From positions 19,678-83,677 of the forward strand of contig JAGHQL010000118.1 in assembly GCA_020080175.1 (NCBI GenBank): DNA of 64,000 nt, written 5' to 3'. The notes beneath the pieces are model-generated. The model did no database searches, was not told the origin of the DNA, and saw only the letters and a list, made by a program, of their open reading frames with translations. Shown here piece after piece: positions 5,701 to 24,233 of the stretch (positions are counted from its first letter, which is position 1; each line of letters starts with the position of its first letter). The DNA comes from Glutinoglossum americanum (taxonomy: Eukaryota; Ascomycota; Geoglossomycetes; Geoglossales; Geoglossaceae). The position numbers and the translations under genes are program-made.

Positions 5701-6533
<833 letters not shown>

Positions 6534-18474: not shown

Positions 18475-20360
18475 TATTTCCAAGCCCTGAAAAAGATATG
18501 AAGAAAAGGCCTCCCAAAGGACCTCGAGATCTGTCTGTCTTGAAGACTCGTTGAAGATTATAAGCTCGAGGAAGCCGAAGAAGTATAGTCTAAACAATTA
18601 ATTATCAAGGAAAGAGGACGTCCGAAGGAGCGCGAATCGCCCGAGGTCGTCGATCCAGTCGATGATGTGTAACGAGTAAAACGGAAGAACTATTTAACAA
18701 AGCTAAGCTGGCGGAGAGCGCTGTCTTGGACTAGCGGAAAGAGGTTGGACCAGAGAGGTAAATAAAGGGTGGAGGAAGGATGAGGAGGTCGCGAAGGGGA
18801 TAATTCCCAGCGGGAAACTCTAAAGGTAATTCATGGTGAAGGTTGCCGGTAGGCTAGGAGTTGTTTGGTTGAGTGAACCGTCGATGAAGGAGGAGCCTCA
18901 GGACTGACGGGTTGAATTCAACCACGAAGAATGTGCGTTTTTGCGCTCTCGTGGGCGATATTAAGAGGACGAGAGCAGGCGGCAAGGCGAGTTGGGAGCG
19001 AGCGAGCCGCGGTGAAAGCGAGCAAGTCACTGCAGGCGCCTGGAGTGAAAGTCGATCGCCGTAGAGGTTCGTGTAAAGTGAGGCGAGGGAAGCTGGAGGC
19101 TGGAGGCTGGAGCGGTCTTGAGCTAGAAAAGATGCCACACGATGCTGCGAACAGCAAGCGCCGAACGCTAGGTAATTGCGCGGGTCCGCGACAACTGGAC
19201 GAGGCACGGTTTGCGGCGGTGTGCAAGCCAGATGCGGATGATGTGGCCCGTAGGATGAGCGACCACTGGGTCAACTGGGCCAACTGGGCCAACTGGGCCA
19301 ACTGGGTCAACTGAGTCAGCTGGATTATCGATGGAAGGAATCCTCCCGATCCCGCTCTAATTGCAAGTTGCGTCTGAGAACAGGTTGTGGGCTGAAGGGT
19401 CTGTACCGTTGCACCGTAGCACCGTTGCGCTGTTGCACCGTGGCGCCGTCGTTGCACGGGCTTCTGGCCTTAAAAAGCAGACCCGGTCACTCTTCAGAGT
19501 CGCTTATTTTTTTGTCGTGGGATGGGCAGTGTGGGTGGGACAAGGGTCCAGAAGTAAGCAGAAATAAGAGGTGATTACTTCGTACTTGCCCCCACAGCAC
19601 AGGCAGCCGAAATCCCCGAAAATCCGCAAAATCCCCCAAACCGAAGGTTGTCGCGTGACCGTGTCAACTCTAATTTCACCGCCTGCGTTAAAGGGGGAAG
19701 AGGCGGGGGCTCGAGATTCGATCTAGGGCGTCCTAGGACAAGTTGCTTCCTAGCAGCAAGTGAATAGGAGAGTTTGGATCAATAGAACGAGTAGGAGCGA
19801 GCAAGTGAGTAAGTGGTATGAATCAGGTTCCGTGGGGTGATGACACGAAAGCTCAGCTAAAGAGTCGCCCCACCGCTGATATCATCTCTCCTCGCGGATG
19901 TCTTTGGGTGCTTGACCCTAGGGTCGGTAGTACACCCCATTTTTGACGATCCGCCGAGCCCGCACCCCGTCAGGGACAATGCTGGACCGGTCTGCAGCTG
20001 GAGTTCATCCGATGCTGGAGTGGAGAAGATCATGGTGATGTCTTTGATGACCTACCCCGCAACCAAAACCCCCGTTTATCGATTAGCTTTTGCACGTGAC
20101 AGCACGGTTCTCGGAACGCTCGAGCACACGCTCAGAGGTGAAAAGTAGGTATAAAAGCCGAAGCGTCTAGCCGGTTGCTATCGCTATTCGGTGATGCCTC
20201 ATTTCTTTTTTTTTCTTCTTTAATTTTTTGCTATTACGGTACCATGCAGTTCAACTTTTTTTTGGGTTGGACCATGCGTCAACTTCCGGAATCAAACTAC
20301 AGAGCCGGCATCAACTCCCTGAGCTTCTCTAATCTGAACGTAACAGTTGTCCGCCCTATC
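18475..20360. other. Long intergenic region with short repeats
   Basis: About 1.9 kb. It should contain the promoter of the TBC gene and the 3' end of NAC beta. Open frames on both strands here are Arg/Ser-rich and unrecognised. An imperfect repeat of GTTGCACCGT-like words lies near 19405-19458. A TATAAAAG sequence at about 20151 points rightward, but no gene in that direction was found. Confidence 0.4.
19263..19320. repeat. 9 bp tandem repeat
   Basis: About five copies of the unit CAACTGGGC/T lie in tandem, with one or two changes at the edges. They are outside any gene I could recognise. Confidence 0.85.
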
Positions 20361-21278
20361 CTACTCGACTTTACTCTCAAAGTTCTCCCCAGCTACCAAT
20401 TCGGGAATGTCGTCATCGTCGTCGTCCTTCTTCTCGCCCTCTTCGCCCTCCTTCTTCTGCATCGACTGGTAGCTCTCTGCAAGTTTGCGGAGAGAAGCTA
20501 GTGAGTCTGGTCCAAGCTGGTTCAAGATACCCGGAACAAGCTCCGTGAGTTCTTTGTCCTCACCGTTACCGTAGATTGCAAAGGTATTTGCTGGTACGGA
20601 GGCGTGGACTAGGGCAGGTGAGGTCAGTCTAGAAGCTACTTAAACCATCTCCTGAGTTGAGCCGTGAAAACGCTACCACTACGCAGTCGTAGTATTTTTT
20701 TTCCCCAGTACTCCTCTGCGGGACTTTGTAGCTTTCAAGCCCCCTTCCGCACTGTTGCTCTTCAATAAGGAACAGGAAATAGACCAACCTTTAGGAGCAG
20801 CAAAATGAATGACATTTCCATCCTCCTTGAACATATTAACCTCCTCAATCGCTTGGATGGGCTGGACATTAAGCTTCTTGAGCGCAGTCTGTAGCTTCTT
20901 GTCATCTGTTCCTGCGCTTTTATGGACCTTCTTCATCTTCCGTCGTGGAGTTCCCTTTCCTCTAATGCGTGATCGCTAGTGGTTAGCGGGATGCTCGGGG
21001 GTGGAACCTTGAAAGACTTAAGATGAATTTGGAAGGTGGATTCGGAGCGGTAGCCATGCCCCACTCCATCCACAAGGAGCTCTCGGGAAGTGGGGTTGCC
21101 AGGAAGTGAAGGCAGGAAGGAAGATATTTACCCTAGGTAAATGCAAGATGTTAGCACAGTGAGAAAACCGTGGGACCAGGGATGAGCCTTTGTAATGAAC
21201 TCCCTCATGTTATTGCACCAATGATCACTTACCGATCCGCACAGACTGCTGCATCTTCGCCAACTTTGCTGTATCCAT
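20361..21278 (-). CDS. EGD1: Nascent polypeptide-associated complex subunit beta
   Basis: My model joins 21233-21278, the single base 21132, 20789-20961 and 20361-20608, giving 155 residues, the normal length. NAC beta binds the ribosome and partners NAC alpha, which is also in this window. Marks are [60 protein letters not shown] and [20 protein letters not shown], followed by an acidic tail. The universal Arg-Ile-Gly-Gly-Lys-Gly motif is restored only if one G is spliced in between two introns (100 and 170 bp), each with a GCTAAC branch site. The alternative, one long intron ending two bases further on, keeps the frame but drops one of the two glycines. Intron 3 is 180 bp. Confidence 0.93.
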
Positions 21279-22019
21279 GATTGCGGCCCGTAGAAAAAAT
21301 GTCGATAAGGAGATGAGAATTGAGCTGTGACGCTGTATCTCTTATGATGTATCGTCAGTCCTCACGCAAAGACCTCTGGACCACCAGGTTCCCAAAACAT
21401 GCGGTTTGGTGAATCTTCTTTGGGTATCTCTGACTTACCGGGTTCGAAGGGAGATCGGATGGACAAGGTCTGAGATGAAGGCGTCCGTCAAAGAATCTAC
21501 AGATTGGTTTTGTTCTGCCCAACCAGAAACATCTTGTGGTTGTCTTCGCTTGTGTCATGTGATCAATTCTTGGCACAAAATAAAAACAGTCTCATACAAG
21601 CTCAAAATATGCTCGAGCTTTGGAAGCTCTGCCCACATCCGCATGGATAATTTTCAAGACACAAATTAGACAAATCATATCGGGTTAACTTAATTTCAGC
21701 TGATCATGGGGTTTATGTGTCACCTAATAAATATTGCCATGGAGATCAACTTTGGTGGAAAGATGGATCAAAATCCACTCTTGGCACTCTGCTGATATTC
21801 AATTTCCTTACATTCAGCTAGAAGGGATGTAGTTTCTAGACTTGTTTCGAAGTTACCCAGGAGTTGGCAAAACTCTCGAGACGTAGAATTGCCCACATGA
21901 AGAGTGGATAAGAATAAGAGAAAGGGGTTTGAAATGGGTTCTATCGACTTTTAAACCTGTGGTAGGTACCATCTCGAACGAGCCATGTTTCTTCCTGGAC
22001 AACGCATTACAGCCTAGGT
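21279..22019. other. Intergenic between two leftward genes
   Basis: 741 bp holding the promoter of NAC beta and the 3' end of the WASP homologue. No gene was recognised; open frames are short and lack family features. Confidence 0.4.
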
Positions 22020-24233
22020 CTACTTCTTGGGCTTGGGCTTGGGCGGTTCATCCCAATCATCATCGTCATCTTCATCGTCTATGGTTCATGTACGTTAGGC
22101 ACTAAACTTCTTCAACATCGGGCATAGATAATATCACTTACCACTTTGACTGACTCTAGTTTTCCGTTTATTTAATGCGGCTTGAAGTGCTCCAGCTAAA
22201 CCTGTATCGCCTCCAGTGGGTGCAGGAGATGCGCCTCCCTCACTGTGATTTGCGACATTGCCTGGAACAATGGCCGCGCTCCTATCCCTTTTTAGGTTGG
22301 GGTCAACCTTCCTTAACCTCCCACCACCAACGCCGCCACTGGCTCTAATTCCCGCTAGCATATTTTCCACTCCGGCTGCGGGTTTCGGTAGTGGTGGAGC
22401 GGCTGATGAGCTTGATATCTCAGATTGATATCCGGAATCGCGAGCTGGCGGTGGTGGAGGTGGAGGTGGAGGTGGAGGTGGAGGTGGAGGTGCACCCGCT
22501 GAAGGGAGAGGAGGTGGTGGAGGCGGCGGAGGTGGTGGTGCGCCTCCCGGATGGGAAGGGGGGGGCGGCGGCGGCGCGGGCGGTTGGGGGCCGGCGGCGG
22601 GGAAGAGCGGGGACCTAGGGGCGTTTCCTGTGGGTGGTGGGGGCGGGTGAGTAACATTTATAGGGATAAGCGGAGACCTAGAGGCCCTTCCAGTAGGCAA
22701 AGGCGGTGGTGGCGGAGGCGAAGCACCAGTAGGGGGAGGCGGTATCGGACGCACAACTGTGGGAATTAGAGGGGCAGGGCGATCTTGAGCTGGAGGCGGA
22801 GGCGGTGGTGGAGCGGAAGGCCCTGAATCCGACGAATTGAAAAGCGTCTTTGGCGGGAGGGGAGGTGGGGGTGCAGCGCTTGGTGGTACCGAGTAGACAG
22901 TGTCCCGAGATGGTGGTGGAGGAGGAACAGAACCCCGGCTTGGGGCTATAGAAGTTGGCGGGAAGCTGAATTTAGATTTCGAGTTTGATGAATCATCTAG
23001 CGGCGTCTTGGGCGGTCTTGGGGGTGGAGGTGGGCCCGGGTTGGAGAGCTGCTGTTGTCGCAAAGGTGAAGATCGGGGCGGATCAGCCTGTGAGTACTTT
23101 CCAGCGTCTGCAATAGCAGGAGGAGCTCTGAACTTCGGCGGGGGAGGACCTCGAGGTGGCGAAGGTTCTCGCGGGGGCGAGGGAGCATTTTGAGTTTGTA
23201 CATGTGATCTCCGGGCTTGAGGTGGTGGTGGTGGTGCGCCTCTTCTCGGTGCGGTAGTACTACCGGTGTTTTGTGGGCTGAGTGAGGTTCTTCCACTACC
23301 TGGAGGACCGCTTGGTGGTGGCGGTGGTGGTCCCCTCCCCTTGCGATCCTGCCCTTCTGCGACACTAGTGTCATTGATCCCATTGCTGCCAGCTTCAGGT
23401 GGATTTTCCATATAGCGTTTGATGAAGTCTGCTTGCTGTTCGAGTACATCTTCCGTGATGCCCATCTCTCTTAACTGATTCAAAAGATTTTGATATTCGG
23501 GATCGTTCTGGCTATTATTCGAATGTTTGGCCTCACCATAAGGCTCTTGTGGTACTACGGTTGAAGACCTGCGTTCCTCTGGAGGTTCGGGTGCTGGAGC
23601 AGATCGATAAGGGTGCAATAAATTCCCAATGCTGAAGTGGTGCTTTCCGTGATGACTCGTGTGGACCCCTTGGGTTCCGTTGACGGGCACATCAATAGAA
23701 TTACTGAACGGTGCCGCCTTTGTCCCTTTGCTGGCGTTTTTCTCCCGATCGTCTACTTTCTTCTTAAACTTTTTCGCATCCCTGTCATCCATGAAGGAGA
23801 AGCCAGCCAGGCATTTCTCGAGCTCGAAAGTATGAAAGAACGTCCTGTCGCTATTGTATTTGAAAGAGTCATATATCTCTTGGTCCCAGATAACTCCCCT
23901 GTTCGAAGGCTACCACTTGTATTAGCCCTCGTCCCATATCTGAATACTAAAATATGCCATTTTCTAGCGAGTCTGGCTGGATAACCATCAGGCTCGTATA
24001 CTCCACGGCGGAGGCTAGAGACCTACCGAAATATCGACCATCTTCAGCCAAAATGTGTGGCCTACCGTGTCTTCCGCCAAAACAACAGCTCCTTGGAGTC
24101 CAGTGTAGGTCCATCGGCGTGGATCCGGATAAGCGATATAAAGCCTTGCAATTGCTGTATAGAAAACCTTGTTAGTTGATGAAGGCACGGCGCGCACAAC
24201 AGTTTCGTTGTCCTCATCCGACATGTTCGTCAT
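22020..24233 (-). CDS. LAS17: WASP family actin nucleation-promoting factor
   Basis: Exons 24027-24233, 22142-23909 and 22020-22078 encode 677 residues. Las17/WASP activates the Arp2/3 complex at endocytic actin patches. The WH1 domain covers about residues 1-125 (RRWTYTGLQGAVVLAED, FWLKMVDISPSNRGVIWDQE, FFHTFELEKCLAGFSF). A very long proline-rich region follows, written as GGTGGA-type repeats on the plus strand near 22448-22600. WH2-like actin-binding motifs appear at ENMLAGIRASGG with LRKVDPN and at LAGALQAALNKRK. The last, tiny exon supplies the acidic tail DEDDDDDWDEPP that binds Arp2/3. No CRIB/GBD motif was seen, as in other fungal members. It is divergent from XPF. Confidence 0.95.

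What the first reader, a model, noticed from the sequence alone, without database searches (positions are those of the whole stretch)
20962..21232. One-base exon in the NAC beta gene
Seen: the first exon ends ...CGG ATC G before GTAAGT. About 100 bp on there is GTGCTAAC...TTTACCTAG, a full acceptor, then a single G (21132), then GTAAAT opening a second intron with its own CGCTAAC branch site and TTAG acceptor. Joining G + G + AGGA rebuilds Arg-Ile-Gly-Gly-Lys-Gly, which is near universal in NAC beta. Known: a 1-nt exon has been reported in Arabidopsis APC11; such exons are extremely rare. Inference: the splicing machinery defines a one-base exon here, or the two introns are removed stepwise as in recursive splicing.
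Basis: partly seen in the sequence, partly recalled or inferred. Interest (0 to 1): 0.88.

Follow-up and report, generated by a model that had tools for sequence, protein, structure and literature searches.

The report
Ancient one-base exon in fungi
In this fungus the gene for the protein-synthesis helper NAC-beta appears to contain an exon one DNA letter long, and indirect evidence suggests that many filamentous fungi share it and that automatic gene annotation often gets it wrong.

Summary
On the minus strand, NAC-beta exon 1 (21278-21233) is followed by a 100-nt intron, a single G (21132), a 170-nt intron and exon 3 (20961-20789). Each intron has its own donor, CTAAC branch site and acceptor. 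Only the G restores Arg-Ile-Gly-Gly-Lys-Gly. Skipping it at TAG gives a 24-residue dead end; skipping with the next AG gives one glycine.
No RNA of this species or DNA from relatives was reachable, so I used proteins. In a search not selected for this junction, 48 of 48 homologues without an organism name have both glycines. Only 18 of 72 named genome annotations do, although all 72 are intact at the next junction. Eight unspliced ORFs, apparently from other fungi, run through the gap from a phase-1 donor. Seven can encode branch site + YAG|G|GTRNGT (0.13 expected from shuffles), the eighth with a relaxed donor.
The one-base exon is therefore very probably real and probably old in Pezizomycotina. 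One-base exons are already known (plant APC11 and VPS55, Fusarium CYP621A), so this is a new member of a known kind, notable for its apparent breadth, its housekeeping gene and the annotation failure. It is not a [D1,2] stwintron or a zero-length recursive site.

The parts
21233..21278 (-). NAC-beta exon 1 (46 nt, ends CGG ATC G, phase 1)
   Evidence: ATG start; encodes [15 protein letters not shown] + G; homologues
21133..21232 (-). intron 1, 100 nt, GTAAGT donor, GTGCTAAC branch site, ACCTAG acceptor
   Evidence: direct reading
21132..21132 (-). one-base exon G (second base of the first Gly codon of RIGGKG)
   Evidence: only two-intron solution restoring RIGGKG; homologue comparison
20962..21131 (-). 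intron 2, 170 nt, GTAAAT donor, CGCTAAC branch site, CATTAG acceptor
   Evidence: direct reading
20960..20961 (-). AG that would be the alternative acceptor (TTAGAG|G), giving RIGKG with one glycine
   Evidence: enumeration; 0 of 111 ORFs without organism name have RIGKG
20789..20961 (-). exon 3 (begins AG GAA with phase 2; [11 protein letters not shown]... to ...IHFAAPK)
   Evidence: NAC domain PF01849 in the spliced protein
20609..20788 (-). intron 3 (180 nt, GTTGGT...CCCTAG), control junction
   Evidence: this junction intact in 72 of 72 named and 48 of 48 other homologues
20361..20608 (-). exon 4 to stop codon

Best explanation
The base at 21132 is a genuine, constitutive one-nucleotide exon of the only NAC-beta gene found in this genome. 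Two ordinary U2-type introns sit one nucleotide apart, in phase 1 and phase 2 of the same glycine codon. They are recognised one at a time by intron definition, because both cannot be assembled at once across a single base, and are removed in two steps. The product is [11 protein letters not shown], the N-terminal segment with the basic RRK ribosome-binding motif (motif role recalled). Shown: the sequence anatomy, the frame requirement, the rarity of the motif, the two-glycine consensus, and protein-level traces compatible with the same arrangement in other fungi. Inferred: inclusion in the mRNA of this species, stepwise order, and presence of both introns early in Pezizomycotina with later loss of one or the other in some lineages.
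For: Anatomy and enumeration. Shuffles and genome scan.

First homologue search (best 120 of 4638 listed). ORFs without organism name: 48 of 48 have both glycines (47 RIGGKG, 1 RVGGKG); all 48 also have intron 3 removed, as expected of transcripts. Named annotations: 18 of 72 (Fisher p = 8e-19). Control junction over intron 3: intact in 48 of 48 and 72 of 72.

Named errors have the form expected when a phase-1 donor meets a phase-2 acceptor. 28 of 132 named proteins are RIG-X-GKG with X = I12, T7, D3, H2, E2, K1, N1. I read this as use of the second GT of a GTNNGT donor; the window itself offers that artefact (RIGKGKG, donor 21228).

40 of 40 ORFs without organism name that lack exon 1 have R or S before GKG, as an AGN codon of a phase-2 acceptor would give (38 of the 111 plus 2 of 5 set apart as 'mixed').

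Ten ORFs run unspliced from exon 1 through the gap, exon 3 and into intron 3. Eight have a donor compatible with phase-1 G|GTNNG. Seven of those can encode CTRAC...YAG|G|GTRNGT, P = 7e-13 from peptide shuffles. The eighth, P0171, fits with donor GTRNG. The two with phase-2 donors, P0132 and P0212, have no such site. Over exon lengths 0-13, length 1 gives 7 of 8, every other length 0-3 of 8.

P0182 matches P0116, which reads RIGGKG, at 72 of 73 residues of exons 1+3.
Against: No RNA read from this species, and no nucleotide sequence of any relative, could be obtained (searches found nothing). Decoding uses back-translation, so it shows compatibility, not sequence; at length 1 the base could also be A in 4 of the 8 ORFs (C or T in none). 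Two of the eight, P0141 and P0182, do not fit a GTRNGT donor at exon 1. That ORFs without organism name are mostly transcripts is inferred; 6 of the 62 with two glycines over all searches (P0124, P0128, P0148, P0176, P0191, P0223) run on into intron 3 and must be genes lacking the gap or partly spliced RNA. The eight ORFs are not all independent: P0136 and P0137 inserts are related. Donor 2 (GTAAAT) lacks the +5 G. Exon lengths 7, 8 and 10 give 3 of 8 each, more than shuffles predict. The motif is not enriched genome-wide.
Confidence: 0.92

Rival explanations
1. One 273-nt intron, donor GTAAGT (21232) to the second AG of TTAGAG (20961-20960). The protein has one glycine ([10 protein letters not shown], 154 aa) and there is no one-base exon.
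For: In frame and open; 8 of 132 named annotations of other fungi show RIGKG.
Against: 0 of 111 ORFs without organism name read RIGKG, even though one search used the RIGKG form as query (best 120 of 434 listed). It must skip the nearer TAG acceptor in favour of GAG two bases on. Ophidiomyces has both RIGKG and RIGIGKG annotations (P0122, P0138), as expected of annotation guesses. BTF3 chains in the PDB aligned over the N-terminus show RIGGKG.
Confidence: 0.05
2. Stwintron: one intron lies inside the donor or acceptor of the other, and the G belongs to an intron.
For: Stwintrons are known in Pezizomycotina and also need two splicing steps (PMC5639578, Background read).
Against: In a [D1,2] stwintron the internal acceptor AG is followed by the rest of the donor starting with T; here AG is followed by GGTAAAT, and removing intron 1 leaves a complete GT donor preceded by an exonic G. 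RIGGKG needs the G in the mRNA.
Confidence: 0.01
3. The gene is a decayed or mis-assembled copy, or is not spliced as read, and the G exon is a chance match.
For: No transcript for this species; only one copy found, so no paralogue to check.
Against: All other exons are intact and the protein is 93% identical to Pleopsidium flavum NAC-beta; shuffles; signs of the same phase mismatch in many other fungi.
Confidence: 0.02

Closest known systems
One-nucleotide exon of Arabidopsis APC11 (Guo and Liu 2015, PMC4674806, parts 1 and 2 of 3 of the text read)
   Same: Constitutive single base between two introns, missed by annotation, needed for frame; authors favour intron definition with the introns removed one after another
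   Different: Base is A, plant gene, tested with reporter constructs, in a 422-nt intronic stretch
Conserved 1-nt microexons of plant APC11 and VPS55 (Yu and Li 2022, PMC8831610, passages read)
   Same: Deeply conserved one-base exons, absent from reference annotations, with loss of flanking introns in some lineages
   Different: Land plants; supported by RNA-seq and RT-PCR
One-nucleotide exon of CYP621A in Fusarium (Nelson and Syed 2026, PMC12940212, parts 1 and 2 of 3 of the text read)
   Same: Fungal nuclear gene, AGGGT exon with its splice sites, central base of a conserved Gly codon, phase-one to phase-two mismatch
   Different: Fusarium orthologues of a rarely expressed P450, with 18 SRA reads; here a housekeeping gene, apparently across several classes, no reads
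Stwintrons of Pezizomycotina ([D1,2], [D2,3]; PMC5639578, Background read)
   Same: Two adjacent introns, consecutive splicing, same fungal subphylum
   Different: No exonic base between the introns; the internal intron breaks a splice signal
Recursive splice sites / zero-length exons (recalled; PMC5126111 seen in search listing only)
   Same: Stepwise removal through an acceptor next to a donor
   Different: Acceptor and donor abut with no base kept in the mRNA; large introns

Membership tests
Nuclear one-nucleotide exon | Complete intron (donor, branch site, acceptor) on each side of one base | tested here: met
   GTAAGT/CTAAC/CTAG and GTAAAT/CTAAC/TTAG around 21132 (sequence signals, not RNA)
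Nuclear one-nucleotide exon | The base is required for the reading frame and the conserved protein | tested here: met
   enumeration; two glycines in 48 of 48 homologues without organism name
Nuclear one-nucleotide exon | The base is present in mature mRNA | not testable with these tools
   no RNA of this species; only indirect support from homologues
Nuclear one-nucleotide exon | Same arrangement in related genomes | tested here: inconclusive
[D1,2] stwintron | Internal intron lies between first and second base of the external donor | tested here: not met
   after acceptor AG (21134-21133) comes GGTAAAT, not TAAAT
Recursive splice site (zero-length exon) | AG directly joined to GT with no retained base | tested here: not met
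   one G between AG and GTAAAT, needed for RIGGKG
NAC beta (EGD1/BTF3) | NAC domain and conserved N-terminus RIGGKG-RRK | tested here: met
   PF01849 at 83 bits; BTF3 chains in PDB, best E 2.7e-47
Introner / repeated intron | Other copies of the intron sequence in the genome | tested here: not met
   the 271 nt has no other match in G000 at E up to 10 (that search skips very common words)

The most novel reading that the evidence does not exclude
The one-base exon dates from the ancestor of Pezizomycotina and has been kept because compulsory two-step splicing through it is a control point. When splicing is slow or disturbed the G is skipped and the message becomes a 24-residue frame-shifted dead end, so NAC-beta supply would report on splicing or growth state. 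The evidence neither tests nor excludes the control role.
Probability: 0.07. Interest if true: 0.88.

Novelty: new member of a known kind. Interest (0 to 1): 0.74.

Why it matters
It puts the smallest possible exon into a universal, presumably highly expressed gene. If the comparative reading is right, the exon persists over much of a fungal subphylum, a fungal counterpart of the plant APC11 and VPS55 cases. It may offer a natural series (both introns, first only, second only) for studying how a spliceosome handles two introns one base apart and how introns appear to move by one nucleotide. Practically, 54 of 72 named NAC-beta entries in one search list differ from the two-glycine form at or next to this junction and are probably wrong, in the part of the protein that contacts the ribosome (contact recalled).

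Tried and rejected

Looking for copies of the intron pair as introners: only the site itself.

Looking for other one-base exons with the same motif in this genome: 9 sites including this one. ORFs near all 9 were listed. By eye none of the other 8 looked convincing; L012, for example, looks like the start of an ordinary exon. I did not test them rigorously.

Rfam at 20000-22000: nothing at the gathering threshold.

A stwintron reading was considered and rejected on the sequence. [quoted passage not shown] The paper is not held; a held paper by the same group cites it for a putative multidrug efflux pump gene. Of the paper itself I saw reference-list entries only.

Not-in-print check: the lists showed no paper on a one-base exon in a NAC-beta gene. 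Some lists were cut (5 of 184,716; 10 of 88; 15 of 60; 15 of 604). The library lacks most subscription journals.

Limits of the counts. Two searches used a RIGKG query and a read-through query, so the 248-protein totals over-represent deviant forms; the 120 are the fairer set. Only the best 120 of 4638, 434 and 1311 hits were listed. My regular expressions put one partial ORF (P0208) among the long inserts; I left it out of the 10 read-through ORFs. Five records without a name but with 'ncbi' among their sources were kept apart as 'mixed'. Of the 8 phase-1 ORFs, P0137 and P0141 suggested the decoding (note); the other six were decoded afterwards, 5 of 6 under the strict motif (P = 4e-9). The shuffle numbers rest on 100 shuffles each, though its printed heading says 300.

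Full report
What is there. The window lies in a 25.8-Mb genome of 317 contigs. The closest named NAC-beta is that of Pleopsidium flavum, 93% identical, a fungus of Lecanoromycetes, Acarosporales; the species of the window itself is not known to me. The gene is on the minus strand: exon 1 21278-21233, intron 1 21232-21133, G 21132, intron 2 21131-20962, exon 3 20961-20789, intron 3 20788-20609, exon 4 20608-20361. The spliced product is 155 aa with one NAC domain. The genome search found two NAC-domain places, this gene and what reads as NAC-alpha, so I know of only one NAC-beta copy.

Is it more than chance? Exon 1 stops in phase 1 and exon 3 begins in phase 2, so one base (mod 3) is missing. 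Enumeration of single introns of at least 40 nt gives 13 frames that keep RRKMKK, none with RIGGKG. Of four open two-intron solutions only the one-base exon gives RIGGKG. Ignoring the G gives 24 residues and a stop; moving to the next AG gives one glycine. CTRAC-N(4-30)-YAG-G-GTRNNT appears in 6 of 10,000 dinucleotide shuffles and the near-exact form in 0; looser forms appear in 24, 152 and 503. Genome-wide the two exact patterns occur 5 times (control 2) and 4 times (control 10), so there is no sign of a general class of such sites here.

Relatives, first line of evidence. The first homologue search was not selected for the junction. All 48 have both glycines (47 RIGGKG, 1 RVGGKG), and all 48 have intron 3 removed, so I take them to be mainly transcripts. 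Of the 72 named genome annotations only 18 have both glycines (Fisher p = 8e-19). At the neighbouring junction over intron 3 all 48 and all 72 are intact. In this list, then, gene finders fail at one junction and not at the next. The deviants include Lecanoromycetes (Pleopsidium flavum), Dothideomycetes (Pyrenophora teres), Leotiomycetes (Drepanopeziza brunnea) and Orbiliomycetes (Orbilia brochopaga), and Eurotiomycetes (Aspergillus niger) and Pezizomycetes (Tirmania nivea); classes.

Over all three searches there are 248 proteins. Without organism name, 111: 62 with two glycines, 10 complete read-throughs, 39 ORFs without exon 1, none RIGKG. Named, 132: 22 RIGGKG, 36 short insert, 56 long insert, 8 RIGKG, 6 without GKGT, 4 other. 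Mixed, 5. The second and third searches favour deviants by design. Six of the 62 run on into intron 3, so they are genes lacking the gap or partly spliced RNA.

Second line: the errors can be read. 28 named proteins have exactly one extra residue, RIG-X-GKG, with X = I12, T7, D3, H2, E2, K1, N1. My reading is that a gene finder moves the donor from G|GTNNGT to the second GT, which adds four bases and turns phase 1 into phase 2. X is then the two bases NN plus the first base of exon 3: AT, AC, GA, CA or AA, as in GTATGT, GTACGT, GTGAGT, GTCAGT and GTAAGT. The window offers the same artefact, RIGKGKG. On the other side, 40 of 40 ORFs that lack exon 1 have R or S before GKG (R 32, S 8), as the AGN codon of a phase-2 acceptor AG|N GGN would give.

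Third line: unspliced ORFs. Ten ORFs without organism name start at the NAC-beta ATG, run through the whole gap into exon 3 and on past PK|G into intron 3 (10 of 10), so they are contiguous DNA or unspliced RNA. Eight have a donor compatible with G|GTNNG in phase 1; six of these also fit GTRNGT, P0141 and P0182 do not. In seven of the eight the peptide can encode CTRAC, 2-30 bases, YAG|G|GTRNGT, exactly once each, with introns of 53-91 and 56-146 nt; shuffled peptides predict 0.13 such ORFs, P = 7e-13. The eighth, P0171, fits with donor GTRNG. The two with a phase-2 donor, P0132 and P0212, have no such site. Over exon lengths 0 to 13 the count is 7 of 8 for length 1 and 0 to 3 for the others, with 3 at lengths 7, 8 and 10. 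At length 1 the base may be G in 7, A in 4, C or T in none. P0136 and P0137 have related inserts; P0141 and P0194 weakly so. P0182 matches P0116, which reads RIGGKG, at 72 of 73 residues of exons 1+3.

Evolution (inference, weak). Of 42 proteins with a longer insert after RIG, 24 fit a phase-1 donor only, 9 a phase-2 donor only and 9 neither. Four look like the phase-1 intron alone (phase-1 donor, xYAG|GN GGN): P0052 Flavoplaca, P0069 Variospora, P0147 Loekoesia and P0177 Rhizina. Three look like the phase-2 intron alone at both ends (P0132, P0190, P0212), and six more have that donor only (Venturia P0154, P0167, Penicillium P0183, P0221 and P0224, P0205). The simplest history is two introns one nucleotide apart in an early ancestor with occasional loss of either. 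Against it: other lichens that I recall as belonging with Flavoplaca (P0061, P0072, P0120, P0188, P0220) look like phase-2 acceptors, and a single intron should not confuse a gene finder. Independent gains are not excluded.

How it works. One base cannot hold two splice complexes at once, so the introns are most likely removed one after the other by intron definition, as argued for APC11 (PMC4674806, parts 1 and 2 read) and reported for stwintrons of these fungi (PMC5639578, Background). Which goes first is unknown. Donor 1 is the stronger (GTAAGT); removing intron 1 first would place C at -3 of donor 2, a slightly better U1 match (my count, not a calculation).

Compared with what is known. 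One-base exons exist: APC11 in Arabidopsis, APC11 and VPS55 conserved in diverse land plants (PMC8831610, passages), and CYP621A in Fusarium with 18 reads (PMC12940212, parts 1 and 2 of 3), described there as the first in a fungal gene. Mitochondrial ones are also reported (PMC12308204 and PMC5436844, passages). This is a further member. Its new aspects are the housekeeping gene, the apparent breadth over a subphylum and the scale of annotation error. It fails the defining feature of [D1,2] stwintrons and of zero-length recursive sites.

Weak points. No RNA of this species; no DNA of any relative; decoding shows compatibility rather than sequence; the nature of the ORFs without organism name is inferred.

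Noticed in passing
window 5701-6533 (+): What reads as the NAC-alpha gene lies about 15 kb from NAC-beta on the same contig (NAC domain match at 5866-5952), so both partners of the NAC dimer are linked here.
   Followed up: partly
window 22134-23909 (-): The neighbouring ORF is a proline-rich protein with part of a WH1 domain (Las17/WASP type by recall) and several long poly-proline runs.
   Followed up: partly
window 20976-20977 (-): A CTAG lies a few bases after the intron-2 branch site and before the TTAG used; it appears too close to the branch site to serve as acceptor.
   Followed up: no
P0122 and P0138: Two records of Ophidiomyces ophidiicola carry two different readings of the same junction (RIGKG and RIGIGKG).
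   Followed up: no
P0170, P0156, P0086, P0112: Some lichen annotations lose GKG altogether (RIGTPRRK), perhaps by using the AG inside the AAG GGN codons.
   Followed up: no
L005, L006, L007: Other places in the genome with branch site, acceptor, one base and GTAAGT in a row; they looked like chance on a quick view of nearby ORFs.
   Followed up: partly
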